A DNA stretch of 64,000 bases from Liolophura sinensis (lineage: Eukaryota; Mollusca; Polyplacophora; Chitonida; Chitonidae), in contig NC_088302.1 in the NCBI RefSeq assembly GCF_032854445.1, forward strand, positions 47,470,645 through 47,534,644. The letters are read 5' to 3'. A program made the translations under genes and the position numbers. Position 1 is the first letter of the stretch; the number at the start of each line of letters is the position of its first letter. Shown here piece after piece: positions 6,658 through 50,500 of the stretch. The notes under the pieces are model-generated. The model was not told the origin of the DNA, searched no databases, and worked only from the letters and a program-made list of their open reading frames with translations.

Positions 6658-6882
6658 ATGTCAGTCTTAGTACGGTTCGCTAAAGCTCTGGGACTTGTTG
6701 GTGTTTATGCCACAACATTGAGTTTGTGTCTTACAGTTTGCACGGGGAATGAAGATGCGAAAAGACTGTACGATGACTTGCTGTGTAGGGGAGGATACAA
6801 CAAACTCATACGGCCCGTGAGTAACAACAGCGACAAGCTGACGGTCCGGCTGGGGATTCGTCTGTCTCAACTTATAGACGTG
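6658..6882 (+). CDS. nAChR exon 1: signal peptide and N-terminal helix/strand
   Basis: Seventy-five codons start at ATG 6658 and end in phase 0 at a strong donor (GTGAGT at 6883). Residues 1-30 form a hydrophobic signal peptide, with likely cleavage after CTG near residue 30. The following part, [12 protein letters not shown] then [16 protein letters not shown] and LSQLIDV, matches the start of nAChR alpha subunits. NNS is a potential N-glycosylation site. This ATG is the first in the frame and gives a proper signal peptide. The bases just before it (ACATACAG|G) resemble a 3' splice site, so an upstream 5'UTR exon is possible. The intron that follows is unusually long (18,760 nt). Confidence 0.9.
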
Positions 6883-9800
6883 GTGAGTACCCTTCCTCTC
6901 TGTCTTTCTCTCCCTCTCTCTCTGTAGTTCGTTATAACTGTAAATAGCTCGTTACCGTTAGGGTATAGGGGTTACAGCTAGTATATATAGATTTAATCGG
7001 CTGAACCTCGCACGTGTAACAGCCGGGTGAACCCTTTCGACTGCTGTTTACGGACTTCTCTACAAACTCTACACTTAAATTGAAACACCTTTTGGCACAG
7101 GCGTACTTATGTGGACATTCAGGTAAATCTATGCTTAACGAATGACGTAAACTAACTTGTATAACCATTAGTTTTTTGGTTTGAAACCTTGGAAGTCTTG
7201 GTGTAACGGCACTTGTTATAGCTGGTAGCATCTACCGTATGCGAAAGCCCCGCTCACCCCTATAGGTAATTGTTAGGCCAGTTATAGTGGGTGGGGTGCC
7301 GTACGGATTTGCTGAAAACTGATACATCCAGGCCTTCACACTCGACTTAAAGGGGGTCTTGTAATGATTCTACCGTCACTTATACTTCTATAACTCAAGC
7401 TGTTGTTAATATGTCTTCGTACAGGCTACCAGGCTTAAGGGTGCATTAACACCTTATGACAGCACCATTTGGAAGGCGAGAGTTGTGTATGTTGTATGTA
7501 GGTCTAAATATACACTCATATCATCATGCTCAAGATCTCCTGTATACTGTAAAACCAGCTAATACTATATGTCATTAGGCTGCAGTAAGAGAATTTAAAA
7601 AATAAAATGATAGGAATCTGAAGCATTCTTGCAAGAGATGGAATTATATACCAGACGGAGAGGAATATGTATAGTTGATGTTTAAATGTTTATTTATGGA
7701 ACATACGTGCAATAAATAGCTTATGGCGTATGCTGTACTGTATAATCCCATTGTATAATTATTGTAGTATATACTGACGGATAAAAATTTGGTCGTAATT
7801 CATATCCGGATGAAAGCAAATAGGACATAGTCCAAACCTCTGTTTTGGATTTGAAGGTGTCTCCTTCTAGTCAGCTGTATACAGATTAAGTAATTTGTTT
7901 GTAAAGCTTTCTGAACAGGACACAGAGTGGTGTTTCAGCAATGCATTCAGCGTCTATTGTTATACCTGCGTATGTAGGAAACAAATACATTATACAATAG
8001 CAGAAACTAATTAACTGCCACTTAAATACTCATTACCTTTATTATCGTCGTCCATCACCGTATTGCATCAACTAGTACGGATTCCGTAAAGCCATATTTC
8101 GGCACTGCGATAAATTTTCCATACTGCTTTATAAACTTACAATGAAATGTCCATTTGTTATTAGCACATGGGGATAGATATGAATGGATGTCATTTACTT
8201 CTGGGATGTTTACACAGGAGAGGGACTAATCTGTATCAAAGCGTGTGTAATTTACACCTAAGTGTATGGGTAATTTAGGTACCAAGAATAGTTTAGTTTA
8301 AATGTGATAATGTATTCTATACATCACACTATATACATGTATCTCTATATAGCCAGCTCGTTCCAGAGGACAGTTTAACTCCTTTACCTGCATTGATTGT
8401 ATGTATGCAGCATGTCTCATTCAGAACATACCCAGGTTATCGGTAAATATTTCTGTAAAATTACAAATTTAGTAAGGTTGATTAAAAGCGTTCTCGTAAT
8501 ATTTGTTCTCGTAAAAAGTCACTTGAGAACACGCTTTAAGATTATACGCGGGAAGCAAAGGTGTGTTGCCACAATGCCGAAGTGTTAAAAACAGCGCGAA
8601 TTTTCTCAGTTACAAAATCGATATCGATTAGCGAAAATTGACATTTTTTGGTGATTACAACTTTTCTGACACCTTACTTTTAACACGCAAATTTGTTACA
8701 GCTGAGCGTGATTCTTCTCGTCCTGAGGATTAATGTGGATTTAATTAGGATTAACGAGGATTAATCTGGGATAAAACACGTGTCAAGAAGTCTGCACTGA
8801 TCGTGTCAAATTGACTGTTCATCGTTAATTCGTGAACAAAAAATGGTCATATTTCACAGAGCCTTTTTTTATGTTGAATTCACCTTGATCGCGATCCAAA
8901 CATGTTGGATAAACATGTGTAAAGATTTAAGCTGAACTGGTCAAGTCCTGTGGCGAATGACTTCAAGCAAAAGGTTCCAGGCCAATCACTGTACTATATA
9001 GCCCTGTGTTGGCTTGCTCTATCAGTATAAGATGTATTTCATTTCCTCGAAACTAGAATTACTGACAGTTCAAGGGCAATCGAGTGTTACGCTAAAACAG
9101 GCAGTTCTGTCTTTAATGCGCTGTATATTCACACATCTGTGGAAACATGGTCAGCCTATACTTGTCTCACGAAGCCTAAACACTAGTCTTCATGCACTGG
9201 TCCAGCTTTTGTTTAGGTATAAAACCTCTCGGAAACATATTCGTTTTAGGATGTGAATGGAAATGTTAAAGAATACGGAGAAAGACATTACAACTGTGAT
9301 AGAACCAAATTCGAAGACTTACAATTAACTGGAAATTAGACACACTCAAGAAAAGGAATGATTATCAAATATTTAAAAATTTTTATTATAGAAGAATTTG
9401 TCATCTTATTTGGAATATCAACACCATACATTAGTCAATATTAGCTGTTGTTTCACCAAGCAGTAACTACCTGACTGACCCTATTAAACCATTGTACACA
9501 TATGTATGATACGCTATTATTAAACAGCTGAACATCATCAGTTTATGTCAAACTGTCGTAATGGATGTTTCGTGGTAGAACTGGTGCCATGGCTCCAGCT
9601 TACTAAGTCAGACTCGGTCTGCCAGCAAACTTTCCTCGACAAATTCGGATTTGTCTTAATTCCAACATGCGCTTGCTGGCATTGCGGGGGCAATGAATTA
9701 TACATATACCGTGATGATTCGCTTACCTTTAAATTCTGGGTTTTGCGTTGTCTAGCACATAGCCATTTACTCTTAATTAAGGGTCTCCACAGAACAACAA

Positions 9801-12800
9801 GGGGCTCTCCAGTAATAGAAGGTCATAAATTAAGACAACAGCCGCCCAAATTCGAGGCTACTTAACTGATTAAAACAGATCAGTAGATTAGCTGGATTAA
9901 AAGGCTGTGAATATATCCTATAGTATATAAGGTTGTTGTTTGTAGTCGACATAAAACTACATTGCGTGTTGAAAATAAGAGCAGAGGACTGTGTTTTCGT
10001 TATCTGACAATTACTTGACTGGTTCGGCGTGGCGTCCGTGCCACTGCATGTAAATGGTGAACAAAGAATCGTAGTCTAAGCTTGTGAAATGCTTCACGCT
10101 TGACCAGAAGTTATACAATGTGACAACAGCGGGCCAACTGAGGCATGAAAAACAACTTGTAGTATAAACGTGGAAAGCTGTACAGATTCGTTTTCTGTGA
10201 CTGGCATTCACGGCGAAAAGGAGATGCATGGTCAGCATGGCAAACAGCCAGCTATGATATAACTCATAGAACTAGAACTGGATGAAACTGCGTGTATAGA
10301 ATAACGGTTTGCGCTGATCCATTTGCAGTGAATACACTTAGATTGTCATAATTATTCCCCACGTAATAGGAAAACTGAAAGATATAATGAGTATGGCTGT
10401 AGAGATTTTGAAAAGAAAAATCCAAGGGATACTAGACCAAATGACATTATACCGTTCGGAATGTTTTATTGATATTTTTTTTCTTTTGTTACTTTTATCT
10501 TTTGTACATATAGTGGTAAAAGCAAACCTACACGTCTAACTAATCACACTTTAAAAAATATTCGGTAGATATGATTTAATGAACAAATAAAGCATTTGAT
10601 AATGAAATTGTGAAAAGATGATTACCTACGTAAGGGGTAAGCCATCGACCTTTGTCAAATTGTTGACGAACTAAACCACGTATGAGGTACAGAAGTATGA
10701 ACACCATAATGGTGGAGGACAGGTAGTTTTCAACGAGTGTTACATTGCATGCAATTAACAATGCCCATTGCAATTAGGTTGTGCAAAATATTTATTTATT
10801 TATTTAATTGTTGGTTAAAGCCATACTCAAGAACGATTTACGTATATGGTGAGCCTAAGTTTTATGGATGGAGGAAGCAGGAGTGCCCGGGATGAACCAT
10901 AATCTCTGGCAGGTTACTGACGGACTTTCCCACCTGTGACGTACTGAGATGCACACCATGCTGGTGGAAAACTATAGCGGCCTTCAAAAATCAACGGACA
11001 ACGCAAAGGGACCCACGCGCGTCGTCGACAGCTTATTGCCACCAGCTCCGCACGAACAGCGAGAGCGGCAGGATGTACACCAGCTCCACACGAACAGCGA
11101 GAGCGGCAGGATGTACACCAGCTCCACACGAACAGCGAGAGCGGCAGAATGTACACCAGCTCCACACGAACAGCGAGAGCGGCAGGATGTACACCAGCTC
11201 CACATGAATAGCGAGAGCGGGAGGATGTACACCAGCTCCACACGAACAGCGAGAGCGGCAGGATGTACACCAGCTCCACACGAACAGCGAGAGCGGCAGA
11301 ATGTACACCAGCTCCACATGAACAGCGAGAGCGGCAGGATGTACACCAGCTCCACACGAACAGCGAGAGCGGCAGGATGTACAACAGCTCCACACGAACA
11401 GCGAGAGCGGCAGAATGTACACCAGCTCCACACGAACAGCGAGAGCGGCAGGATGTACACCAGCTCCACATGAACAGCGAGAGCGGCAGGATGTACACCA
11501 GCTCCACATGAACAGCGAGAGCGGCAGAATGTACACCAGCTCCACACGAACAGCGAGAGCGGCAGGATGTACACCGGCTCCACACGAACAGCGAGAGCGG
11601 CAGGATGTACACCAGCTCCACATGAACAGCGAGAGCGGGAGGATGTACACCAGCTCCACAGGAACAGCGAGAGCGGCAGAATGTACACCAGCTCCACACG
11701 AACAGCGAGAGCGGCAGGATGTACACCAGCTCCACAGGAACAGTGAGAGCGGCAGGATGTACACCAGCTCCACAGGAACAGCGAGAGCGGCAGAATGTAC
11801 ACCAGCTCCACACGAACAGCGAGAGCGGCAGAATGTACACCAGCTCCACACGAACAGCGAGAGCGGCAGGATGTACACCAGCTCCACACGAACAGCGAGA
11901 GCGGCAGGATGTACACCAGCCCCACATGAACAGCGAGAGCGGGAGGATGTACACCAGCTCCACATGAACAGCGAGAGCGGGAGGATGTACACCAGCTCCA
12001 CATGACAGCGAGAGCGGGAGGATGTACAAATTTCTTGTCCTACAGTGATTGACAAGTGATTATTGCAATAGATATGTGTTATCTTTGATAGTCAGTCATG
12101 TATATACGAGATCAGTTAAAAAGCAGCCATGACCTGTGTTTCATATATAGGGCATCACTGATTTAATCGACTACACATTGATTGTGTCATAATCAAATTG
12201 GAGGGCAAGAAATTGGTTATAATACTCATCGAAGGAGTCAATAGGGCGTGGTAGCTTATCTGTATATGTGTATATACATATATATGTATAGGCCTATATA
12301 TCGCGAAATATCACGCGGCTGTAGATAATGATTTCGGTTTTAACGTTGATCTTTTCCTGTTTTTTTTTTTCGCAAACCCCAACCAGTTACGTCATGCCAC
12401 CATCGTGAGGTATCAAATGATAATCTGGAATCGACGTAAGACGTGAACAAAGAAATAATGGATCGCCTTGAATCGGACAATCACTTGGCTTCTGACATCA
12501 CATTTTCCAAAGTTGTTCAAGTCCAAACCGGCCTACCCTACCCCAATATCAAAGTCCCAATAAGCAAACAAGCGCTGTGAGTGAAAATCCAACTATAGTC
12601 ATTGTCAAGCTTAATGCAACCTAATTCAAGCAGCAGCGAATGATCTCCACATGTCGCCTGTAATTGAATAATATCGGACTTGTTCTGTCTGACGCCGTTA
12701 TCTTAGTCCTGCTCCTAACACGATACAAATTGATACGATATTGATTTGCCTACCTCTAATTTAATAGTCCTGATTTGTGTAGACGGTTTGTCGAGGCCGA

Positions 12801-24800: not shown

Positions 24801-27800
24801 GATCACCAAACTGTACCAAATCGACCTAACCGACTGACAGGCCGACGAAGACTATTCTGACTTCTGTAGCGCGCAGTTAATCCCAGCTATATGCTGATAA
24901 TTTTCAAGAATGAAATGGCTTCCTTATACGTAGGGTACAATTAAAGGCCGTCAAGTAATCGCGAAATGCCTTTCTGAACAAACCAGTCTAATTAAACCCT
25001 GTACTCTTTTAGTTACGTTTCTGTTTCAGTGTCGTTTCACGTGTACAGTTATGACGTGGTACACATTTAGTGTAGCGTCATAACAGATTCACATGATGAC
25101 TCACTGATGGATCTGCATGCTGTCTCCATTTGAAAAAAAAAGATAACATATGAATTGAGATATAATTGAATTGAATATGAATTAGATAACATATGAATTG
25201 AGATCATTGATGAAGGATCAGTATTTAGTTTATATTCATACAATATTTTATATGCGAACTTTGATGTTGACAACAGTCGTTATTCATGGACAGAGGGTAC
25301 ATGCTTTGTTTTTAACAAATTGTTTTATTCTGATATCAATACTTCCAGCACGGATTTACCGGGTTTTGCCCTGGCTATTCCCAGTTTCACTATACCGGTA
25401 AATATTCTACTGGCATATTTCTAACCATGAGCGATGCCTGGGTTCAACTGAAAAGTTCTTTGTCCATGAAGGCACAATGAAACATTTAAGACTTTTGTCA
25501 TATTGGTATATTTGCTAAATGCAATATAAGTCGTATTGTTCTGTTTTATTTCACTTATATTCATTTAATCATGACAGGGTTCCTGTATCATAAATTTATT
25601 CTGATTATGCGCCAATCATTGGTTTGTATTTACTTTTTTCAGGATGAAAAAAATCAGATTATGACAACAAATATATGGCTACGACAGGTAAGTAACAACG
25701 ATCCAGTGTTATACATATACTTATTAGTCGTCTACGTATGAAAATATATATGTATTGATCAATGAACTTATTAAAATCGTAGTTATACACAGGTAATTTG
25801 GGTCAGATATTGCAAAAGATTTTGATTTTTATAAAATGACAAGACCAACTTCCTGAACCGTAAGATCAACCTGTAGCATCCGTTAGTGTTAACGATTCGT
25901 ATACGAATGTCTAAATTAAACATTTTTTATTTAGTTTTTGTATTTATGATCTATTTTATGTAAAATAAGAGTAAATTATAAACAGCTGGTCTAAATCTAT
26001 TTAATAATATTTTGAACCAAATTATAATTCGAATTCTTCATTAAGTATAAGCAGCCGGTGAACTATTGGTGTAGCTGTACGTGATAGTCACAGCTATTAG
26101 ATGGCGTGAGGTTTCACCTCTTAGAATGGCGTCCTCTTGGAGCTGCCTCACTGGAACGATATGCTGAAGACACCAATTCAAAATGACCGCTACAAATTGT
26201 GTCGCCTTACGCAGAGTGCCTGAGAAAAAGCATACAGTTTGAGAATTTTGAAGTATTTGATGTTTTTAAACCTTATTCATAATCCCATGTGTATTCTTAG
26301 TATACTGTGTACTACAGAAAACGACGAAGGCTCGGTCTGACCTGACTGTTCTTAATGAAGAAAAAAAAAATGTAGGAAAGTAAATTTCCCACCCATTTTT
26401 TTGTTTCATCCATCGCCTGACGTGGCTATTTCAATTTGAGCTGACAGACGATGTCGTGTAGAATATCTGCTGGGACTCGAAATGGCGGAAGTTTTGTCGC
26501 TTAACCTACGCTCTGTTCCTCCACAGTAATTTTCTTTCATCGCCTCTGTGTGATATTAAATTGGTCAGTCACTGTAACAAATATCGAATGTACCTTCGCT
26601 CCGCTGAGCAGACCTTGTCACGGGAGAACAGCGGAGAAAAGTAATAAAATCACCTCTGATCCAGTCAGACAGAAAGTGTTGACCGGGCGTATCTGTTACC
26701 CCTAGCTTCCTCCGCCTGGCGGCGCTGACTGCCTCTTACGTCAGTGACACGGAAAGCTGGGCTATATACCAACACCATTGCTTATCATATAATCACCTCA
26801 AGAACATTTCACTGTATGATTGGAGGAAACCGGACTAACACACAACCATCCGCAGTTTGCTGGTAGACCTTCCCTCGCACGTATAATTGCTCATTATGCC
26901 TAGTCAGAATGTATATAACAGGAGAAAAGAAGAGCATTCGAAATAAATTCAGTTTTAATAAAGTTAACAGTTAATAAATCTATAATGCCACAAATCAAAT
27001 CAGCAGAAGAGATATACATGGCAATTGTGGCATTTGGAGTTCTTAAGACTTGTGGGTAGCATTAGATTTATTGACTCTCCATGTAGTTTATTACAATTTT
27101 GTAACAGAAGTGAAGCCCATCTGCATGTAATCGAACTGGTCGTGGCCTCACAAATGGTCATATTCATAATTTCACCATTATTGCAGTGTAATAGATACTA
27201 TTTCCCACTTGATGCCACATGACACTTTATGTATCATAGATAATACTAGGCGATAACGGTCTAAACATCATTTTAAATATTTAGGCCTAGGCTACCATAG
27301 TTTAAGGAATTAAGTATTTGTATCTTAGAATTAGCTCAGTTTGATAAATAATTTATTTTTTCGTTGTGCGTATAGTCTGAGCGAACGTAATTGCGAATTA
27401 CTGTACTTATGGTCGAGATATCGTGGGGCTTTAGGCCTACATAGCTTCGCCAGATGGAACATAGAAAAACTAATTTCACAGTCTCTGAAGACATGCTGTT
27501 GGTGTACAAAGATGCAAAAGGGCCGGATAGTCGATGCGGGTCTTGAGAAAGTCTGGCCTCGACTAAACTACAAAAGCGATCGAATCGTTTTTCACTCGAG
27601 GAAAAGCTTCCCTCTGTTGCAGCTTCGATCGGCTTTGCCCAAGGAGAAGATAGGCGCGAGCACAGAGGCAACATATGTGCGGTAATATGAAATTGGGAAT
27701 CGGAAATCGATCCGGCAAAGGCTTAAATGATACAAGAATTCCCGAGAAAAATATTCCGCTTATGGCATAGATGTCTTGATAATGCCTGACATGTGAGCAC

Positions 27801-30800
27801 TCACGACATTCTTAATCTCTAACGCACTAAAAGTGCGATTTTATTTCTGGACAAGATGCAAAACTCGCCCGTTTCCGCCACTGAGACGGCTCGTGATTTA
27901 TAATCCCCTTTATGTTGCACTAAGTTGTAAAGACGCGCATAGCCGGCTATCTGCTAACGACAAGAGGCATCAGTGCACCTTGCTGTACCACTTAACACAC
28001 TCTTTATTCTCGCATTAAACTGCACTAAATGTCCATGGCGCAAAAAATGTGTGAACAGAACAGCGATCTTGACGCTGGTGTTCCACCAGATTCAATCTGT
28101 ACTAATATTCAGAGTAGTAGTAATGAAGTATAAAGAAAAATAAGAGAAACTGACAAACAGAGCGATGCAATTGATCACGGTGTTCATCTCTTGTAACAGG
28201 CAGCGGAGTGTTTCCATTTAGCTGGCAATTTGTACACACTTAAATGGCAGCGCACATGGCCTTATGAATGTGCATGCCCTCTGCATCTTTACTTCTCCTT
28301 GTGTAGTTATGTCAGTCTTATCAAAGTCTGCCAGTTCCTCCCACCCCCACCCAGAAATGATAACTCTAATCCTTTGATGAATTTACACATTGCTTGTGAG
28401 TTTGATATAGAGCTCGCTGAGATATGCTACTGATGTGCATTTGTGAAATGTAAATAGAAAATCATGCAGCAATTGATGTTTAAAAATATGTGTCACACCA
28501 GCAAATTCAGTAATGAAATATCTGAGATGATAGCAAACGTGCATGCATTGGACACTGCTAGCTAAATCCTTTGTGTATTTGTGTTGTTTATTATTAACTT
28601 ATTCCAAGCAAAATATCAATATCCACTGTAGAATGCTTTAGGTCAGTTTTGTCCAACTGTCTATGGCGTATACCAACTTTATAATGAGCATAGTGTATTT
28701 CTTTAATGTGCCAACCAGGACAACTTCCAGGAGAGATATTCCCAGTCGGTGTTAGAGTGTGTTAATTGACGTCAATTACTGGATGAATGTTCTGCTCGAA
28801 GCTGTGTGGGCAAAGATGTTCAACGAAAGCAACGTTGTCCTTCATGGCCTTTGTTTATTTCCCTTAGCTTAAAAATCATACATGTTCAGTTTTGGATACC
28901 GTGTATCCCAAATCAAAATAAACAAAAGGGTACCAATGAAACAACATGGTGTTTTCGGTTTCTCCAGTGACCTCACTAGAATTCTAGACAAGAAATAATT
29001 TAGAGTTACCAAGTGTGTCAGGAAAAATACCTGCGATTGTGTAGGTCTCGTTCCGACTTGTTTTTAAAAATATCTAAGTTTCTATGATTTGTTGTTTTTC
29101 TTTTAATATATATGCTATGAACAGCAGAACATGTAGCCAACTGATGTCATGGTGTTAGGGGCGTGTACATGAACAGTTAAAATAAAACCCTAACTGAGTT
29201 AAATTGACATGGGGCTGTATTTCACCGGTTACGTGTGACCATTTGCCAGCTGTTAAACTGTCGTAGCTGCTCTGGTTTTTCTCTCTATGCTGTACGTCTA
29301 TCACACTGTCGTCTCTGCTCTGGTTTTTTCTCAGTGCTGTACATCTATCACACTGTCGTCGCTCTGTTTTTTTCTCTCTATGCTGTACGTCTGTCACACT
29401 GTCGTGGCTCCTCTTTTTTTCTCTATGCTGTACATCTATCACACTGTTTTCGATGCTCTGCGTTTACTCTCTATGGTGTGCGTCTGTCACTATGACGCCG
29501 CTGCCCTGGTTTTACTCTCTATGCTGTACGTCTATCACTGTCTTCGCTGGTCTGGTTTTACTCTTTATGCTGTACGTCCATCACTCTGACGTGGCTGGTC
29601 TGGTTTTACTCTCTATGCTGTTTGTCTATCACACTGACGTCACTGCTCTGGTCATACTCTCTATGACGTACGTCTCAATTATATTTGTAACGCTGCACAG
29701 GAATGGATTGACTATAAACTAACATGGATCCCCGACGAGTATGGGGGAGTCCAACGTATGTATGTTCCATCCACCAAGATCTGGCTGCCAGATATCGTAC
29801 TCTACAATAAGTAAGTGACTGGTGGACAATGGTTACCCAAGCAGCATGTCCATGTTGTATTGTCCGGTGCTCTCGGGTTTTGTGATTTTTAATCTGTGAT
29901 TTTGTAAATGATGCTATATTTCGTCAGTGGCTAGACGTTTCACAGCGCAGTGAAATTCACACTTTTTTTCGTGCTTTGTTTGTCTACGATTGACTATAAA
30001 GTGAAAGAAATGGTATTCATGATAAGAGAAACGCATGGTACCACAGTTAATGCTGCAATTATATCACACTTGGCTAGTTAAAATGTGCACTTCTTCAAAA
30101 CTATAATAAGGGCATTAGGCAAGTGTGACGGCATTGCACAAATTACTTTGATGTCATGGCACAATAACGGTGACATCACTCGTTACTCGTAGCACGAATA
30201 TAAGATGCTTAACCTTTGTAATATCAAGATGGCGCTGTATGGAATTTCACCGACTAGCTTAGGACGTTAATTTTAGTTAAATGTTTGTGATTGCGAGTGT
30301 TGTGCCATGTCACTGGAGCATGCTTGTTCAGATATTTAACTTCTTTAGTCAGTTCGCCACATACATAGCACGGCTTTGTTTGTTTTCTCACGTGTTAGTG
30401 CCTGCTTTGGTTCATTTGTGTTCTTTTTTTCCCCTTCTGTATCTTGTTGTGATAAAGGAATGGGAAGACACAAGTCTAAGATGGGACGCGAGGGAATACG
30501 GCGGTATTGCCAAAATGGAGATCCCCGCCTCCATTATTTGGCTCCCAGATATTGTCCTATATAACAAGTAAGTCAAAAGCACAAGAAGTTAGCTGATATA
30601 TGCTATATTATTGCTATATATATATTGTATTGCTAATGTATAGTTTTGAAATTGTCTACGTTAAGACAAAGTTGTGGTAATCTGCTTAATGTTAAATCTG
30701 CATAATGTTAAATTGTGATTAAATTTGGATTCGTTCATTCATATGGCTCCCAGATATTGTCCTATATAACAAGTAAGTCAGAAGCACAAGAAGTTAGCTG

Positions 30801-30818
30801 ATATATGCTATATTATTG

Positions 30819-30910
<92 letters not shown>

Positions 30911-33900
30911 ATATATTGTATTGCTAATTTCTAGTTTTGAAATTGTCTACGTTAAGACAAAGTTGTGGTAATCTGCTTAATGTTAAATCTGCTTAATGTT
31001 AAATTGTGATTAAATTTGGATTCGTTCATCTATGTCCACATTATCTGCATTTATGGATGTAAATAATTCAACATTTTAGAAATTTAGACTGTTCACTATG
31101 AAGCTGTGTTGCATGTTATATTTGTTGTGTATTGTCTTCATATGAGTGTTACCTCAATTCTGTGTCACTTTAGTTTTGTGTTGTTAAATGATCATTCTCC
31201 TCTGTAGATTTATGTAACACCCTAGTACAATATCCGGTTTTTAATTTGTCAGTTGGCCTAATAGTTTAAGAAGTGTCGAAACATACACACATGTATACAG
31301 ATAAATATGGCTGGAGTTTTATGAATTGTTAAACAGATAACGTGAATTATGTTACAATCCCTGTGATGTGTGAGACGTACAATTAACCAGCTAACATTAT
31401 GAGTTTTATTTAATACTCGGTTCTCTTTGATTGATTTTCTTGGTGTCCACAGTTGTGTTTCTCATTGATCTATCTAACAACTGTACCATTGTACTAATCA
31501 AAACTGTGGCATGACAAAGTGGTTTTGTCGTGCCCTTTGTTCTTTCTTTGACAGCGGCCTACAATGTGAGGTCACAAAGACTTGCCTCCTCAGCGTTGCA
31601 TGTTTAGAGACACAAAGATTTACCCGTGGAAATAGAGTGGAGATTCATGACGTAATCACTCAGTTTGCTGTTAAACTCGTACATTGCCCCGAAACCATAA
31701 AGCCCCACCCCCGCCCCATAGGCCAAAAACAATAAAAAAGGGGAAAAAGCTGTCAGACTTGTAAAATCTTACATGCTAAAAGTACATCACCAAATTGCAT
31801 TATAGATTCTGTCGAATAATCCCCAATATTAGCCTCATGATCTGTCAAGCTAGGCCAGCACGGCACCCATAATCACATCCTGTCTATCATTTCTTAAATT
31901 GTAGCTCTTCTTTATAAGCCAAATTGCACTGCACTGCATTTGCTTAGGCAAATTTCCCCGAATGAGCTATAACACAGGCGCCTTTTGATTTATATAAACA
32001 AATTAGCATGATTCTACTTTGACCATACGTGAAACAAAATCCCTTGACAATTTAATGTAATTTTGATTTATCATAAAACAATTATAATTTGAAATGGAAA
32101 TCTTTATTTTTTGCTCTTCCTTATGTTTTTCTCTAATAACAAAAATGCTAATGATAAACGATCTCAGATTAAATATCCCCGGATTGTGCATTGAAAGCTT
32201 TTATTTAACTTCTCAACTGCCAATATCCTTCTTTTAAGTTCTGTTAACTGAAAATAAGATGCAGCCTTCTTATACAAGCACATTATGATTTATTTATTCG
32301 CAATTTAAGTTTTGTCCCTTAACAATCTTTGCGAAGACTAAGCCATAAAGCTACGATCTGACTGCAGATTAAACATCTCAATGTTCTCAATACACAGGAA
32401 TAAACAGGATTAAATAATTTAACGTTAACATTATGTGAGTTTTAATGAAATTATTATTATAAAGGTATTTCTTCAAGTGAAAGAAAACATGTAATGAAAA
32501 AAAATGTAATTCACCTTTGTATTGAGAACATTTTTGTCGCCCTAAATTCCAACTCTTCCTCCGCTAATTTCATCTTCATTAATGCTGTGGCTATTGCAAT
32601 AACCCTATTATTTGCGAGATAATCTTAATCACGATTATAAACTGAAGTAGGTGTATTAAGCGGTAGAATACGTTAGCGCTTGGAATGTTGTTCTGAGGCC
32701 TAACCCTTGTATTAACAATGTTACTAACCATGCATGTTATCTCACATTACATTGGAATGGGCTGATTGATCGCTTGCCTTTATGGCATGTCCAACGGTTG
32801 TTGTGGTGGCACTTAATTTGGGGCTGTGATATGTTATTCACCGCATGTACATGACATTGACTGTGTATTTCAGTGCTGATGGCAATTATGAAGTAACCCT
32901 GATGACAAAGCCACTTTGCATCACACTGGTCGAGTTGTTTGGGAACCGCCTGCAATTTACAAAAGTTCCTGTACCATTGATGTCGAGTTTTTCCCCTTTG
33001 ACGTCCAGCTATGTTCCATGAAGTTCGGGTCCTGACCTATGATGGCGACCAAGTGGACCTTTGTACATATATGCTCAGCCGAGGGCAAGGACGATAAACC
33101 AATCCACAGAGGCGTAGACCTCAAGGACTTTTACCCTAGTGTAGAATGGGACATTCTAGAAGTTCCCGCCAAAAGAATCAAAAATTTTACCTATGCTGCC
33201 CCGAGCCCTACCCCGATATAACCTTTAATATAACAATGCGTAGGAAAACTCTGTTCCACACTGTAAACCTGATCATTCCTTGCGTAGCCATTTCCTTCCT
33301 GACAGTGTTAGTATTTTACCTTCCCTCTGACAGTGGTGAGAAGATTACTCTGTGTATCTCCATTCTGCTTTCATTGACCGTGTTTTTCTTGTTGCTGGCG
33401 GAATCATCCCGCCTACCTCATTGTGGTACCGCTGATCGGCAAGTACCTTTATTTACAATTGATATTGGTTACACTCTCCATCATTGTGACCGTTGTCGTC
33501 TTTGAACGTACACTTCCGGTCGCCATCGACGCACACGATGTCGCCCTGGGTGCGCAGAGTCTTCCTCAACATCCTGCCACGCCTGCTCATCATGAGACGG
33601 CCGAACATTGAGAAGGAGAACCGACCCCGTGTCGTCATCCGGACCTGCAATGGGCTGGAGGTCCGAGACTCGTACGGTGAGCTGAAACGTCCTGAGTAGA
33701 GAGTGTGCTTACGAGACAAACCAGGGCTCGTACCCTCTCTGCGTGGTGGACCGGATGATTTGTTAGCGGGCGAAAGTGAGACAATCTCCCAGAATTCGCC
33801 ATCGGCACTACTCACCAGACGCAATACAGGCTATGGAAGGGGTGTCCTTTATCGCTGAACATCTCAAACATGAAGACCATTTAGCCGCAGTGAGTAAACC

Positions 33901-34385
33901 GGTAACAATATCACATAAGGAGGACCCGACCCCTCGTTAAGTGTCTACAAACCTTTGCCAAACCACCCTGTAGACGGTTCTGCAGCTGTAAGAAGGTCAA
34001 ACGTGCTTCTGCCCCAGTGTAACTGTTGTTAACAGTCTTATACACTTTGTTTAATTGCTGTGACAAAATTCCTAAATTTGTTTTGACCAAGATGCTTTTG
34101 GCATAAAGAAAGGCCTTTCAAAATATTGAATACCTCTGTTAGGCTAAAATACTAACGAATTAGCGTTGAAACTAATCCGTCAAAAAATTACCTTTGTTGT
34201 TGCAGGTGCAGGAAGACTGGAAGTACGTTGCCATGGTTTTGGATAGATTGTTCCTCTGGATTTTCACGACGGCCTGTGTCGTCGGGACATTCGGTATCAT
34301 TCTTCAGGCTCCAACTCTTTACGACGACCGTCATGCGTTAACAAAAGAAGATACGTGTTTCCAAGACATGCTTTTGAACAATTAA
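6658..34385 (+). CDS. Nicotinic acetylcholine receptor alpha subunit (whole gene span)
   Basis: This gene encodes a subunit of the pentameric acetylcholine-gated cation channel of the neuronal/synaptic membrane. Seen in the sequence: signal peptide, extracellular ligand-binding domain with loop A motif WLPDIVLYN, a Cys-loop with 13 residues between its cysteines (codons at 32970 and 33012), adjacent cysteines (33194-33199) that define an alpha subunit, the GEK start of M2 (33335-33343) typical of cation channels, M3, a short cytoplasmic loop and M4 in the last exon. Coding pieces are 6658-6882, 25643-25687, 29701-29810 or 30458-30567, 32874-33889 and 34206-34385, all with GT-AG borders and compatible phases. 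The reading gives about 525 residues, normal for the family. It looks closest to protostome neuronal alpha subunits of the insect alpha1-alpha4 type, judged from memory. The 32874-33889 exon carries frame breaks, described separately. The exact subunit name cannot be assigned. Confidence 0.9.
11042..12028. repeat. 38-bp minisatellite, 26 copies, in nAChR intron 1
   Basis: Twenty-six units of 38 bp (CCAGCTCCACACGAACAGCG, then AGAGCGGCAGGATGTACA) fill 987 bp; the length equals 26 x 38 minus one, explained by a one-base deletion in the last unit. Variants are few: ACG, ATG or AGG at position 11-13, and CAGG, CAGA or GAGG near position 29. Units with GAGG cluster at the 3' end. Since 38 is not a multiple of three, three units (114 bp) return to frame, so most frames stay open on both strands; the 340-371 residue frames are not genes. 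GC content is far above the surroundings. Confidence 0.97.
14691..14948. mobile_element. MITE-like element with about 42-bp terminal inverted repeats
   Basis: The left end (14691-14733, starting ACTCAAAAAATTAATC) pairs with the reverse complement of the right end (14908-14948, ending GATTTTTTGAGT) with only a few mismatches and a two-base gap. The 258-bp element has no coding capacity; its inside is rich in TAACAG/CTGTTA, which repeats the inner part of the ends. No clear target duplication is seen (TTC before, CTT after). A non-autonomous DNA transposon is the best reading; the superfamily is not assigned. Confidence 0.7.
21004..21102. repeat. 33-bp tandem repeat, three copies
   Basis: Three units of 33 bp (GGTCTCGTCCGGCAGGATGC, then GTTTATTCCAGAT) with 3-5 differences each. 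In nAChR intron 1. Confidence 0.85.
24480..24800 (+). promoter_or_regulatory. GC-rich island with TATA box in nAChR intron 1
   Basis: A CpG-rich core (CTTGGCGCGGCGCGGCG near 24524-24540), two CACGTG/ACACGTG E-box-like sites (24574, 24626) and a TATAAAA at 24769-24775 lie in this order about 870 bp before exon 2. It could be an enhancer or an internal promoter. No coding exon with an ATG follows directly, so a protein from it would lack the signal peptide. Inference only. Confidence 0.2.
25141..25206. repeat. Short direct repeat
   Basis: AGATAACATATGAATTGAGA occurs at 25141 and again at 25184, 43 bp apart, about 450 bp before nAChR exon 2. A local duplication of AT-rich intron sequence. Confidence 0.6.
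25643..25687 (+). CDS. nAChR exon 2: 45-nt exon with loop D tryptophan
   Basis: Fifteen codons read [15 protein letters not shown], flanked by TTTTTTCAG and GTAAGT. A 45-nt exon with this content is a hallmark of nAChR genes across animals; the tryptophan belongs to binding-site loop D of the complementary face. Phase 0 on both sides joins it to exon 1 (ends IDV) and to either alternative exon (both start EW). It lies 18.8 kb from exon 1 and 4.0 kb from the next exon. Confidence 0.92.
25688..29154 (+). other. nAChR intron 2, unique part
   Basis: No exon recognised. A locally GC-rich block around 26690-26780 holds TTACGTCA, similar to a CRE half-palindrome, and CTATATACC; this is weak evidence of regulation. 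Overlapping 112-114 codon frames on both strands at 27336-27685 have no recognised motif. Confidence 0.5.
29155..29695. mobile_element. Dispersed repeat with internal 45-48 bp minisatellite, ending at nAChR exon A
   Basis: A 5' part (CATGAACAGTTAAAATAAAACC, then TTTCACCGGTTACGTGTGACCATTTG) is followed by about nine units of a 45-48 bp pyrimidine-rich repeat (CTCTGGTTTTACTCTCTATG, CTGTACGTCTATCACACTG) at 29265-29665, and a 3' end reading CGTCTCAATTATATTTGTAACG. Related pieces occur near 46650, 50020 and 62310, so this is a family rather than a local repeat. The form, unique ends around tandem units, resembles the non-autonomous elements with central satellites known in bivalves, but the class is not proven. 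It ends only about ten bases before the acceptor of exon A. Confidence 0.65.
29701..29810 (+). CDS. nAChR alternative exon A (110 nt, loop A)
   Basis: The exon reads [18 protein letters not shown], then [18 protein letters not shown] plus two bases (AA) of a split codon completed by T at 32874 to give Asn. Its borders are CTGCACAG and GTAAGT. A length of 110 nt is the usual size of this nAChR exon. It encodes beta strands 2-4 and binding loop A. Its sequence is nearer the protostome consensus than exon B, so it is probably the ancestral version. The acceptor is preceded immediately by a pyrimidine-rich minisatellite of a dispersed repeat (29265-29690). Confidence 0.9.
30458..30567 (+). CDS. 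nAChR alternative exon B (110 nt, loop A)
   Basis: This is a second version of the preceding exon, 647 nt further on: same 110-nt length, same phases, borders TAAAG and GTAAGT, and the same start (EW) and end ([10 protein letters not shown]). The middle differs strongly ([17 protein letters not shown], then MEIPASI). Including both copies would add 110 nt and shift the frame, so the pair is expected to be mutually exclusive. Conservation of the tryptophans, the YGG turn and loop A argues against a dead copy. Insect nAChR alpha4 is known to have an alternative pair at the same place; whether this pair is shared or independent cannot be told here. Confidence 0.85.
30744..30772 (+). pseudogene. 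Truncated third copy of nAChR exon B 3' end
   Basis: Twenty-nine nucleotides repeat the last part of exon B exactly (codons for WLPDIVLYN plus AA), followed by the same GTAAGT donor and the same downstream intron sequence. It has no 5' half and no acceptor. It came with the tandem duplication 30539-31030 and cannot be a normal exon, but it presents an intact donor site within the intron. Confidence 0.85.
30820..30906. repeat. (AT)n microsatellite, about 43 repeats
   Basis: Pure AT dinucleotides in the second copy of the duplication; the first copy has about six at the same place (30610-30622). Likely variable between individuals, and self-complementary in RNA. Confidence 0.95.
31031..32873 (+). 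other. nAChR intron between alternative exons and large exon
   Basis: AT-rich, ends in a weak pyrimidine tract and TATTTCAG. Either alternative exon must splice across it. No gene or repeat recognised. Confidence 0.6.
32874..33889 (+). CDS. nAChR large exon: Cys-loop to cytoplasmic loop, with frame breaks
   Basis: The acceptor is GTATTTCAG and the donor GTGAGT at 33890. The exon completes the split Asn codon and continues [12 protein letters not shown]. Recognisable in three frames: [17 protein letters not shown], the Cys-loop (32970-33014), [23 protein letters not shown], the [11 protein letters not shown] binding loop C, M1 (LIIPC), the PSDSGEK start of M2, the AEIIPP end of M2, M3 and the start of the M3-M4 loop. 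To follow the homologous reading the frame must change near 32910 (one base missing), 33034 (missing), 33062 (extra), 33175 (missing), 33403 (missing), 33422 (missing) and 33501 (extra). Most of these lie in or beside short runs of one base. A TAG at 33697 and a last shift near 33820 follow; these two could instead be a 142-nt intron (33677-33818). Purely conserved residues between the breaks suggest consensus errors rather than an old pseudogene. Confidence 0.85.
34206..34385 (+). CDS. nAChR last exon: M4 and C-terminus
   Basis: Acceptor TTGTTGCAG, then [20 protein letters not shown], the M4 membrane segment, [17 protein letters not shown] and a hydrophilic tail ending at TAA 34383-34385. 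The [12 protein letters not shown] motif before M4 is one of the most conserved stretches of nAChR subunits. The exon is in phase 0 with the preceding one (ends LAA). The intron before it is 316 nt, with nothing else recognised in it. No frame problem. Confidence 0.92.
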
Positions 34386-44562: not shown

Positions 44563-47500
44563 GTAAGTACATTAGAAGTGAGTTTAAATTCCCAGTACAG
44601 GTACAGACCATCATCGATCTCGTTCTGTGACCAACATTGCAGTATTGGGACGGGCTACGTTAGAAATTAGCAATAGATGGCTTTAGCTAGATATCCAGTT
44701 TGGTCCATAAGAAACTGTCGGTCTTTCAATAGTATATTAACTGGCTGGAAAGGATATGTTCAAACTATATTGCATGGAGAAATATGATTTCGTGATTTTT
44801 GTTCAGCAATTCTGGCCACAAGAACCTTTCTTCAAGCCCACAGGACTCTGTATATTGTAAACTGCTGTATCTGGGGTAATAAGTATTGCCCAAATGGCTG
44901 TCCTTATGTTTTGACATTACTGAATACACTTATTAATAAGGCGTGTTTCCTCGAACTATTGCTTCATCTTCCCTTTGCTACTAACAATAAAACATAACAT
45001 CTATAAGCATTACCACATCCGTAAACATTACTGCAAACTGCCAGTTCATTGTGCATTTTCTTTCTCTTCTAAAATGAGGTTGTGAAATGTTCATTTCATT
45101 ACAGTGTCCAATCACAAGAGCCGTTTCAGCGTTACAGAACACATTTGGTGTCACCAATGACTTCATCGAGGAAGAACAAATCAGCACAGGTGTTAAACCG
45201 TTCAGTCAAGTACCCGGACCTAAAGGGCTGCCTGTTGTAGGAACGCTATTTGATTACTTTAAAAAAGATGGTTTACGGTTCAACAAGATGTTTGAGGTAC
45301 GTCAAGCCATTCGAATACGAATCATGTAAAAAAGGCACATGTATTACCAGACAAGACATGTTACGTAATAACATCGATATAATTATTACACAGGTAGTTG
45401 ATTTTCAGTTGTTAAGCAATATGAAATGTGGTAGAACTTCTACATACTGCATGTGGACTGTGACGTTAGCGGAGCCATGAAAGGTGTTAACACTGCACCG
45501 GCAATGTTGCCCATTTGTTCCCAATAATGTTACAGTGCAGAAATGCAAAAATTTGTACTAGTAGTTGGCGTGATTTCGCATGAGTATAAACTAATTTCCA
45601 CAACTTTGTATTTCATAGGCCTATCAGCAGCGCGCCGAAGAATTCGGGCCAATCTTTAAAGAAACCATTGCAGCAATTTCCACCGTTGTTATAAGCGACC
45701 CGTCCGAGTATGCCAAGGTGATCCAGACTGAGGGGCGTTATCCGATCCGAAGGGAGATGGAACCTATGGCCTATTATCGAACACAGAAAGGGATGGGACT
45801 GGGGCTCGTTAATTCGTAAGTTCTACGTGAAGCGCTGATAGAAGTCACGATAACCAACCATTTTTGCTTAATAAAAACGGGTATCTCTTTGATAAATTGT
45901 TACCTTAGTACCCTTGAAAACCATGTAGGTTTTTCATGAATATGTATAACTACTGTAGTTATATGGTAACGTCTGATGGATTTTTGGCCAGTGTGTCCTG
46001 TATATTATTAAACATGACTAACCCTAGTCTCCTGTATTTTACTAAACAGGACTAACCCTAGTCTCCTGTATGTTACTAAAAATAACTAACTCGAGGCTGC
46101 TGCTTTAAGTTAGGGAGTTTGTCAAATACCTAGTTGGTTACATCAATTCTTTTTTTCTTCCAAAATCTTGTCCGCTGTCACCTTAAGTACGGCGTTCAAA
46201 ACGGAGCAAACAAATAAATAAGAAAAATAAATAACAACTATTGTAATGGATCTTATTTGCCCAGACATTGCAAAGCTTGGATTCAAGTGATGACTGGATA
46301 ATAGCTCTGTTTATTTTACAGACAAGGGGAGGAATGGCACAAATATCGAACTGTACTTAGCAAGAAAATGTTGAAACCCAAAGAGGTGTCAGATTATTGT
46401 GGCTCCATGAACGAGGTTGCCAATGATTTCATGGATAGACTGAAGTACATACAGGATGAGAACTGTGAGGTACCAGCGTTAGAGAAGGAACTCTTCAAAT
46501 GGGCGATGGAATGTGAGTAATAGCCGTATTGTGCTTGATACGTAGGTCTGTGTTACTCTTCTTGTGGATTAAACATCCTCGAGGCCTGCGTAAGCCATGG
46601 TAATAGGGGTGTGCAAGTTGCTACTATACATGAAATGAGGTAAAGTGACAAGAGGCCGTATTTCACCAGTTTCGTGTGACCATTTTATCACACTGTCGTC
46701 GCTCCTCTCGTTTTTCTCGTCTTAATTATATTGCAACGTTTTATTTAAAGAAGTACAAGATATATTTATATAGACCTTTTCACTGAAACTGTGCGTTTAA
46801 TTCAACACTTCTATTATAAATACAAATGGTGGTTAAGAGAACTGGAGACAGTCCCAATATTCCACATGGCTTTAATCAGATGTTAATCGCAACTGAGGCC
46901 AGATTAAAAAACACATTATTTATGCAGTGTAAGACGAAGGTATAAGTATGTTTCTCTGGACGGCCGTATCCTACTTAATAAATTTTCTAAGCCACATCAA
47001 TGCCCTTGCAAGTTCAGGATTCTTGTTAAAACGTTAGTTCAGCAAGACTCTTTTAACTCGTTCTTAGAAAATTATCTATATATTTATGGAATTTGTTATG
47101 GTGGAAAATATATTTCACAAAAATTGAGATACTGCTGATATGGCGTAAATCCATCATCATTCATTCGTTTTATATTATTAAATTTTGAAAATCAACATAT
47201 ATTATGAAAAGGCTATCTTACAAATGTGCTTCACAAAGTTTTGCAACTCTTTTTATTCCAGCTATAGGAACTGTTTTGTTCGAGGAAAGAATAGGATGCT
47301 TTTCAAACCCCACCCCTCCTATGGCCCAAGGCTTCATCGATAACTTGATGGGATATTTTAAATGTATGCAACCACTGATGTACAACATTCCCCTTTACAA
47401 GATTTACCCAACGAAACTCTGGAAACAGTACGAGCAATATGCAGATAACGTTATTGCTTTGGGGAGGCAGTTCGTTGACAAGGTAAACTGGGTCTATTGA

Positions 47501-50500
47501 TTTTTTCTTCGAATTTATTTAATTGCTTTTGATTCCATGTGTATGAAAACTCATAAAAATGGAAAAATAATCAAGTTTAAAAGACGGTATAAACGAATTT
47601 TTTCCAAGTGAGTGACAAGTTCAAATTTTTCAATCGTTTCGCATTCCTTGAGAACGTACAAAATCATTAAATTCGACTGTTTGCAGACGCAGTCTTAGGC
47701 TAGTTGATCAGAAATGACTTTGTATACATTATTGCTTCTTACTGGATTTTCATTGATTACATGTAGAAAAAAAAGAAATGCCGATTTAATCACACACATC
47801 ATCTACAAATTGCTCCATCGGTTTCACTGTGAAATACGTATTATTGTTCGGTCTGGGTGACACTTTTGAGTAGTTGTCAAAATGAGGAAAAAAAAAGGAC
47901 GAAAATACCGATTTCTGTTTTCAAGACTATTTTCTGAATATGTTTCTGATCATCAGGTCAGGTAATTCATGTTCAGGGTAAAGTTTTTCCTTTATCTCCT
48001 ATTTTTCTGTGAAGTCTGTTAGCCGAAGTGTATTGATATTTGGTCACCATTTCGTGCTAAATTTTGTACTTAGAAGTAGGGTTAGTCAATTTTCAGACCA
48101 GATTCTGTGCTATACCCAGTTTCTTCAAAATAATCAAAAAACTGTTTTATTAACGTTCAGAGATTACTCCTGTTCATTTGAATAAAAGAGCGGTCTGACA
48201 GACAAATAAATGTATAGTATGTTACAAAAGAGTTAATCTAATATTTCACTGATATGCCCTAATATGCTAAATTTTAATTGGACTGGTCGATAACGAATTT
48301 GTATTTGTATTTCTTTATCATTATTTCAAGTTTTGTCGATCTATTCATTTGATAAGGGCCTAGAGTGTATTTTAGCAGCTGACAAAAAATGTAGAAAAGT
48401 TTTTTTTAGCCTGAACAGAATACTGCGAGTTGTTTGCATGGGATTTACTTTCAATTTTGTCCTTCACAACTAAATTTCTTTGCCAACTATGACGATGTGA
48501 AAATATGAAGGAGCCACTGTTATTATTTCAGAAAGTCAACGCTATTAAGCAGCAAGTAGATAATGGTGTTGAAGCATTCGGGCATGAAGAAAAGTCGGCG
48601 TTTTTGACATATTTGTTGTCCCAGAGTTCTCTAACGCCGGAAGAAGCTAACTCTTCCGCAGTCGACCTGATGATGGGTGCGGTGGAAACGGTAAGATAAA
48701 AAATAAAACACATGAATCAATACTCAACAAAAAAATGTATCGAAAATGTTAGAAAATCAGCAAATAGCAACCACCTTATCAGAACGAGTCAAACTGTCTC
48801 CTCCAATTTGAGAACAAAATGCAATATCTAATGGATTTAATATTATTTGTCAGATTTGACAAAAGTAAACGAATTCTCTATTTATTGAATTTTATTTTCA
48901 ATGTTTTTTATTTTCGTTTTAGACTTCCAATGGAACAATATGGACACTGTACTGTCTGGCCCAAAACCCAGAGGCCCAAGAAAAAATATATGAAGAGTTG
49001 TCAAAGGTTCTCCCAGAGGACGGGGAAATCACTGCCAAGAACTTAACGGACATTCCCTACATAAAAGCCTGTTTAAAGGAAACGTTTCGAATTTATCCAA
49101 TTACATTCGCCACAAGTCGTTATCTGCAGGACAACACAGAGATCGCTGGATATGAGGTGCCCGCGGGGGTGAGTTATCAATAAATTACTTTCCATTTTGA
49201 ATTATTCATAGAACACCAAAAGTTTTGACACCCTCAAGGACTAACTGATCTAAACTATTCCAGATTTAACGACTTAATTTCTACGATAATTTTCACGACA
49301 CTGACATCAATAATGTACGATCAAAATTGTAGTTACTAATTAATTTATTTACTTCCCTCCATTTGTGGTACATATGGCCTTGGAACTCATGAGGCTACTG
49401 TTTGTCTCATTACACACATAATCCCTTCAAAGAGCCTTCTATAGTCTGTTTCTTTCAGAGAGTCCCATGTATACAGCCTTGTAAAATCAGTCATATTCTC
49501 TACCAAAATTGCCTTTAACCAGTGACACGGAATAATTCAAGCTCTACACATTCATATGTTGAACGTCCATATTATTACAAGGAAAATGCAGTTAAAATGG
49601 GCGTGGAGAGTAATTTGTTTTACAATGGTTGCACCAATAAGCGGTTAGAACTCCATGCAGTAACACAGCCTGCACTACTCTCTCTCTGTGAATACACCAC
49701 ATCGCTTTAATTTCCTATCACCCCTGTCTAAAGCCGTACTGCCGTGAGATCATATACTACAAGACATAAAATAAAATTCATTTATTAAGGTTATATTATA
49801 CTAAAACGGGTAAACAGTTTCAAACATGGCAGTGTCAGTAACAGAGTTTACAGTTAAGTTAATTGCAGTTTAGGAAACTTCACATCAGTACTCTTGACAC
49901 AATATAGTTTCAGCACTCGGCCTTGTTATATATCCGACAGATTTTTCTGAACACGGGCTTAACAACATTTTTGTGTAGCAACTTTCCGTATACCAGGAAA
50001 AAATTCATAGATATCCTGATTTCACCGGTTACTTCTGACCATTTGCGAACTATTGCACTTGTGATGCTGCTCTACTTTTACTGGCTATGTTCTTTTACAT
50101 TATTGTTAAAACAGCGATTACATAAATCTCCAGTGAACTCTGACAAAAGTATAGGCCATGAAGATTAGTGTGCATCACGATAATCAGATGAATTGCACGT
50201 ATACAACGACAATCATATTTATGTGGTGAGGAATCTGGGCTTCACTGAACTTGAGCTGGATCTTCAAGACTCAATCATCTGAACACTGCCCAATGTTTGT
50301 CCCAACGTTTCTCTTGGCTTTAATGAAATGAAATAAGCAAATCATTCCCTTTAACGTTTATATTTACCCAACCTGATTCCAGACGCACGTGCAGGCAAAC
50401 ATCTTCGGGATGGGCCGTGACCCCAATCTGTTTCCAGAGCCCGAAAAGTTCCTCCCAGAGCGCTGGCTTAGGGGTAACACGAGTACGGACTTGAGGGCCT

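What the first reader, a model, noticed from the sequence alone, without database searches (positions are those of the whole stretch)
29701..30567. Mutually exclusive exon pair in the ligand-binding domain of an nAChR alpha subunit
Seen: two exons of exactly 110 nt, 647 nt apart, with the same phases, same start (EW), same end ([10 protein letters not shown]) and good splice sites, but different cores (about half the residues in the middle differ). Together they would shift the frame, so one or the other must be chosen. Known: insect alpha4 genes have an alternative exon at this same position. Inference: switching strands 2-4 beside loop A would change ligand sensitivity or assembly of the channel; a comparable system in a lophotrochozoan may be undescribed.
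Basis: partly seen in the sequence, partly recalled or inferred. Interest (0 to 1): 0.78.

Follow-up and report, generated by a model that had tools for sequence, protein, structure and literature searches.

The report
Swappable exon in an acetylcholine receptor
An animal nicotinic acetylcholine receptor gene carries two alternative versions of one exon that shapes the top of the ligand-binding domain, at a different place from the insect cases compared, but the next exon is frame-broken in this assembly, so RNA proof is needed that the gene works.

Summary
The exon pair is real. Exon A (29701-29810) and exon B (30458-30567) are each 110 nt, with the same phases, AG acceptors and GTAAGT donors. 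They share 21 of 36 residues; synonymous change is saturated (pS 0.77) while pN is 0.31, so the pair is old and constrained. Either exon alone keeps the frame; both or neither give early stops. Among 60 exon-4 matches listed in the genome it is the only close pair. Two corrections. (1) Insect alpha4 exon 4 is not at this position: it holds loop E and the Cys-loop. Little substitution damage goes with it, so I favour local sequence error over a pseudogene, unproven. Best reading: an ancient either/or MIR/loop-A cassette, a new variant of known nAChR exon switching. No RNA was available.

The parts
6658..6882 (+). Exon 1 of the nAChR gene: start codon, signal peptide and N-terminal helix region (MSVLVRF...RLSQLIDV), donor GTGAGT
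   Evidence: Read from sequence; joined protein matches solved nAChR chains. Start codon and signal peptide by eye.
25643..25687 (+). Exon 2, 45 nt ([15 protein letters not shown]), holds the loop D tryptophan (name recalled)
   Evidence: AG acceptor, GTAAGT donor, phase 0 at both ends
29257..29675 (+). 48-nt minisatellite, about 9 copies, ending 25 nt before exon A
29701..29810 (+). Alternative exon A, 110 nt ([36 protein letters not shown])
29811..30457 (+). Intron between A and B, 647 nt; pairing with the flanking intron stretches tested is no stronger than in shuffles
30458..30567 (+). Alternative exon B, 110 nt ([36 protein letters not shown])
30741..31029 (+). Recent partial duplicate of exon B's last about 33 nt, its donor and intron, split by a TA run at 30820-30916; not taken as an exon (no AG acceptor in front of it, by eye)
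32874..33900 (+). Large downstream exon: Cys-loop to TM3 and cytoplasmic loop, vicinal CC (alpha type). At least seven frame switches between about 32911 and 33498, one stop further on; right end approximate
   Evidence: no second copy found in the assembly
34206..34385 (+). Last exon: pre-TM4, TM4 and C-terminus (...[17 protein letters not shown]...), open
   Evidence: Read by eye from sequence; left edge could also be 34212

Best explanation
A mutually exclusive exon pair, made by an old tandem duplication, in a conserved alpha-type nAChR subunit gene. Each transcript uses A or B. Splicing both or neither shifts the frame and yields early stops, so only single-choice transcripts can code for a subunit (shown from sequence; the decay of the wrong products is inferred). 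The choice replaces residues aligned to alpha1 positions 59-94. The half around the MIR (67-76) and the third beta strand differs, while the loop-A end [10 protein letters not shown] is kept the same. I infer that the switch tunes conformational maturation, assembly partner choice and agonist sensitivity rather than the core acetylcholine contacts. The frame breaks in the next exon are most likely local sequence or assembly errors, so the gene is probably intact in the animal.
For: Exact length, phase and splice sites of both exons. A:B NG86 pS 0.77, pN 0.31; 12 of 17 identical non-W/M residues use different codons, so identity is kept by selection and not by recency. Both exons keep the five columns invariant in the 31 other 36-residue exon-4s compared (W2, W9, W28, P30, D31) plus D4 (30 of 31); B's conformity score ranks 9th from the bottom of 33, A's 6th from the top. 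Joined to exons 1, 2 and the start of exon 4, both versions match solved nAChRs almost equally (best 133 and 129.8 bits). The pair is the only one of its kind among 60 exon-4 matches listed (neighbours told apart as separate genes). MIR = beta2-beta3 loop and residues 67-76 (PMC10520083 and PMC5404922 passages); exon columns 9-18 align without gaps to alpha1 67-76 (chain 9avu_A). The downstream exon, read across its breaks with X at each, scores 301 bits to human alpha4, more than the two intact sister genes tested (281.5 and 294.2).
Against: No RNA evidence for either exon. At least seven frame switches in the next exon. Of 57 listed family members covering that stretch, the other 56 have no stop in it, so the assembly is not generally poor; the recent duplicate at 30.6-31.0 kb shows no length difference in its 120- and 58-nt aligned stretches, so error would have to be local. 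No second, intact copy found in the assembly. No competing RNA structure found: 1, 3 and 4 of 10 shuffles reached the observed pairing energy in three tests. A:B identity (58%) is not exceptional: 8.4% of 465 pairs of other exon-4s are at least as alike. A and B are not resolved as sister exons in a tree of 36 columns (support 38/0).
Confidence: 0.6

Rival explanations
1. The gene is a pseudogene: the exon pair was once an alternative pair in a working subunit, but the downstream exon has lost its frame and no full channel is made.
For: At least seven frame switches between 32911 and 33498 and one stop further on. It is the only one of 57 listed family members with a stop in the stretch matched. 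It sits in a cluster of sister genes that could replace it.
Against: No stop in 232 codons of nine in-frame blocks and 1 change at 25 columns invariant in the sister rows, where the 13 sisters themselves show 0 to 3. At an assumed (recalled) neutral ratio of about ten substitutions per indel, 60-80 substitutions are expected; simulation gives P 0.009 to 0.0007 for so little damage, but 0.06 for 40 and 0.30 for 20 substitutions, so a very recent death is not excluded. Each switch fits a one-base change. Read across, the protein is more like human alpha4 than two intact sisters are.
Confidence: 0.23
2. Only one exon is used; the other is a silent relic or rarely spliced noise.
For: No RNA data. 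Each exon has one unusual residue in the W-[DN]-P motif (I at column 10 in A, seen in 0 of 31 others; A at column 11 in B, seen in 2 of 31). B's acceptor ends in AAG.
Against: Saturated synonymous sites with an intact frame, intact splice sites and retained invariant residues in both; a relic of that age would be expected to have decayed.
Confidence: 0.1
3. The pair arose by fusion or unequal crossing-over of two neighbouring nAChR genes, so A and B come from different paralogs rather than from duplication of one exon.
For: The gene lies in a cluster of nAChR genes. A:B identity (58%) is no higher than A or B to some paralogs. The tree leaves both unplaced.
Against: A and B are each other's best match, though tied with others. 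No further exon-4-like match lies between A and B. Introns of paralogs were not compared. It concerns origin, not use.
Confidence: 0.2

Closest known systems
Insect nAChR alpha4 exon 4 / 4' (Drosophila, Apis, Anopheles, Bombyx, Tribolium)
   Same: Two alternative exons thought to come from an old tandem duplication, in the ligand-binding domain of an alpha subunit; one version assembles less efficiently in Drosophila (PMC2045683 passage)
   Different: Different exon: it carries loop E and the Cys-loop cysteines (PMC2064938 section 6 part 1). The exon here ends at loop A, before the Cys-loop.
Insect nAChR alpha6 exon 3a / 3b
   Same: Duplicated, mostly mutually exclusive exon in the N-terminal domain (PMC1919356 passages; PMC8505678 Table 1 passage)
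   Different: Covers loop D, the exon before this one; both copies can be spliced together in Bombyx with the frame kept, which the 110-nt pair cannot do.
Insect nAChR alpha6 exon 8a/b/c and alpha8 exon 7
   Same: Duplicated alternative exons in nAChR genes
   Different: They change TM2 and nearby, not the ligand-binding domain.
Expanded nAChR families of lophotrochozoans
   Same: Large, partly tandem nAChR families; here 57 rows covering the downstream stretch were listed
   Different: The passages seen of PMC6896357 (12 of 14 places shown, the word-start 'splic' occurs once, in a reference) describe retroposition and gene duplication, not exon duplication.

Membership tests
nAChR alpha-type subunit gene | Cys-loop, vicinal cysteines in loop C, nAChR TM segments | tested here: met
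   Read in the downstream exon across its frame switches; matches human alpha4 at 301 bits. An open frame is not met in this assembly.
Mutually exclusive exon pair | Homologous adjacent exons of equal length and phase | tested here: met
Mutually exclusive exon pair | Double inclusion or skipping breaks the frame | tested here: met
Mutually exclusive exon pair | Transcripts carry exactly one of the two | not testable with these tools
   No RNA data held
Mutually exclusive exon pair | Both copies under purifying selection | tested here: met
   pS 0.77 versus pN 0.31, invariant residues kept; a pairwise test, so it shows constraint on the pair, less surely on each
RNA-pairing (docking/selector) type of exclusive splicing | Competing intron base pairings beyond chance | tested here: inconclusive
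   1, 3 and 4 of 10 shuffles as strong in three comparisons of the A-B intron with 2 kb upstream and with the downstream intron; the rest of the upstream intron and upstream-downstream pairing were not tested
Same exon position as insect alpha4 exon 4/4' | Exon holds loop E and the Cys-loop | tested here: not met
   Exon content compared with PMC2064938 section 6; the exon here ends before the Cys-loop
nAChR pseudogene | Frame broken in coding exons | tested here: met
   in this assembly
nAChR pseudogene | Relaxed constraint (stops, loss of invariant residues) | tested here: not met
   one stop in the cytoplasmic loop, beyond the blocks counted

The most novel reading that the evidence does not exclude
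An ancient splice switch of the MIR / beta2-beta3 loop and the run-up to loop A in a conserved nAChR alpha subunit: a third kind of ligand-binding-domain switch beside insect alpha4 (loop E and Cys-loop) and alpha6 (loop D), expected in related animals because the copies are saturated at synonymous sites.
Probability: 0.42. Interest if true: 0.62.

Novelty: new variant of a known kind. Interest (0 to 1): 0.47.

Why it matters
If both exons are used, one gene makes two receptor subunits that differ in the MIR and its neighbours. By published work this region matters for receptor maturation and agonist sensitivity (title of Luo et al. 2009, seen only in reference lists) and is part of an epitope through which one nanobody potentiates human alpha7 and another binds silently (PMC10520083 listing and passages). 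It would be a natural MIR-swap experiment, at a site where the insect cases found here have no exon switching.

Tried and rejected
Rejected: same position as insect alpha4 exon 4. Rejected: recent duplication (synonymous sites saturated; the introns around A and B share nothing beyond chance matches). Rejected: a third full copy; the extra [11 protein letters not shown] at 30741-30773 is a partial recent duplicate without an acceptor. Looked for and not found: a haplotype copy that could settle the frame breaks (self at 100%, next best a 66% paralog; best candidates only). Rejected: a repeat family of intronless nAChR fragments, suspected from the profile 45-121 hits; the three fetched look, by eye, like anion-channel exons. 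Led nowhere: exon tree (unresolved), RNA pairing (one partner shuffled in two-base blocks), literature searches for a lophotrochozoan case (two searches listed 20 of 53 and 20 of 1,192 papers; only PMC6896357 bore on it), (published indel patterns, nothing useful). Not done: structure prediction, because the spliced and frame-broken proteins are not contiguous window translations.

Limits of the counts. The zero-frameshift controls (11 comparisons) came from frames chosen as open, so they only check the aligner. The fair comparison is: 57 rows with profile start 86-106 and end 196 or more, counted by hand, 56 without a stop inside the match; the table is capped and speaks only of that stretch. 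The aligner allows only one-base shifts, that also a two-base one. The blocks were chosen between switches, end before the cytoplasmic loop and so leave out its stop. Of the 58 other exon-4 matches, 33 were read: 31 entered, one 116-nt exon was left out, one identical copy was dropped; two fetched pieces (L034, L044) did not pass my pattern and the rest were not fetched.

Full report
What is there. A nAChR gene runs on the + strand: exon 1 at 6658-6882, a 45-nt exon 2 at 25643-25687, then exon A at 29701-29810 and exon B at 30458-30567, a large exon from 32874 to about 33.9 kb and a last exon from about 34206 to 34385. A and B are each 110 nt, start in phase 0 after AG, end two bases into a codon and are followed by GTAAGT. 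('Exon 4' below, when paralogs are compared, is the family name used in my calls for this 110-nt exon.)

Either/or by frame. Exon 2-A-downstream and exon 2-B-downstream both read through...NIWLRQ-EW...[16 protein letters not shown]. With both A and B a stop falls inside B; with neither, the second codon is a stop. So only single-choice transcripts can code. How the splice machinery would choose is not known. The intron between A and B is 647 nt, long enough to be spliced; the sites are GT-AG; pairing of this intron with 2 kb upstream and with the downstream intron was no stronger than in shuffles (4, 1 and 3 of 10 shuffles reached the observed value). Other pairings were not tested.

Age and selection. 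A and B share 21 of 36 residues. NG86 counts give pS 0.77 (saturated) and pN 0.31. Of the 17 identical residues other than W or M, 12 use different codons, among them 7 of the last 10 residues, which are all identical. Against 31 other 36-residue exons of the same genome, both keep the five invariant columns; for conformity A ranks 6th from the top and B 9th from the bottom of 33. A:B identity of 58% is equalled or passed by 8.4% of 465 pairs among the others, so the two copies are about as far apart as old paralogs. The tree of these exons could not resolve their origin: duplication of one exon and fusion of two paralogs both remain open.

Uniqueness. A whole-genome search with exon A listed 60 matches. 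The other close neighbours on one strand have downstream-exon hits between them, so they belong to separate genes; A and B are the only pair without one. The search scores only the best candidates, so a very divergent duplicate elsewhere could be missed. The matching search with exon B did not complete.

Position in the protein. In an ungapped alignment to muscle alpha1 (chain 9avu_A, query 16-109 to chain 14-107), exon columns 9-18 fall on alpha1 67-76, the MIR (PMC5404922 passages), which is the beta2-beta3 loop (PMC10520083 passages). Five of these ten residues differ between A and B. Column 35, the tyrosine of LYN, falls on position 93, loop A (name recalled), and is the same in both. So the cassette changes the top and outer part of the domain and keeps the loop-A end. 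With A the best solved matches are beta3 and alpha2, with B alpha2 and alpha4, by narrow margins. An effect on maturation, assembly or sensitivity is inference.

Comparison with insects. The sources say otherwise: alpha4 exon 4 substitutes loop E and residues near the Cys-loop, with the Cys-loop cysteines inside it (PMC2064938 section 6 part 1); a review table says Cys loop (PMC8505678 passage). Alpha6 exon 3 is at loop D, and alpha6 exon 8 at TM2. None is the exon found here. Searches for a published case at this exon or in lophotrochozoans showed none in their listings from the open-licence library, two of them cut at 20 rows; of PMC6896357 I saw passages, which report gene expansion. This is not proof of absence from print.

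The exon after the pair cannot be read in one frame. A frame-aware alignment to three sister genes finds seven switches between about 32911 and 33498, and with two of them one more plus a stop in the cytoplasmic loop. The seven hold at penalties of 8, 10, 14 and 20 and drop to five plus a stop at 30. Of 57 listed rows that cover this stretch, 56 have no stop inside the match and this gene is the one that has. So either the gene is dead or this kilobase is badly sequenced. Points for bad sequence: each switch fits a one-base change; nine in-frame blocks (232 codons, chosen between the switches) have no stop; 1 of 25 columns invariant in the sister rows is changed, where the 13 sisters show 0 to 3; read across with X at the switches, the protein scores 301 bits to human alpha4 against 281.5 and 294.2 for the two intact sisters tested. 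Simulated neutral decay leaves so little damage with probability 0.009 at 60 substitutions and 0.0007 at 80, but 0.06 at 40 and 0.30 at 20; the ratio of ten substitutions per indel behind 60-80 is recalled, not measured. Points against: the other exons of the gene read cleanly and the recent duplicate at 30.6-31.0 kb shows no length differences, so the error would have to be confined, and no second copy was found to check against. I put working gene to pseudogene at about three to one.

Verdict. A real, old, constrained alternative exon pair at a site distinct from the insect ones compared, in a gene whose integrity needs confirming. New variant of a known kind; moderately interesting now, more so if RNA shows both exons in use.

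Noticed in passing
L022 (G000:C8:26827000-26836900), 7735-9449: A sister nAChR gene has a 49-nt minisatellite of about 31 copies after its exon 4, each unit resembling the exon's 3' end plus its donor; 9 exact GTAAGT occur in the stretch, the exon's own donor included, so it is a run of possible decoy 5' splice sites. The partial duplicate after the window's exon B is a looser parallel.
   Followed up: partly
29257-29675: A 48-nt minisatellite of about 9 copies ends 25 nt before exon A.
   Followed up: no
30820-30916: A TA run of 48.5 units inside the recent duplicate downstream of exon B.
   Followed up: no
G000:C8:47339422-47608181: The window gene sits in a cluster of nAChR genes: five other loci on both strands within about 270 kb.
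   Followed up: partly
47189-47500 and 50377-50736: Exons of a cytochrome P450 gene on the + strand (Pfam p450; the first match is just under the curated cut-off).
   Followed up: no
3077-4350 and 10896-12091: Two stretches of repeats that are open in several frames on both strands; by eye they look like minisatellites, not genes.
   Followed up: no
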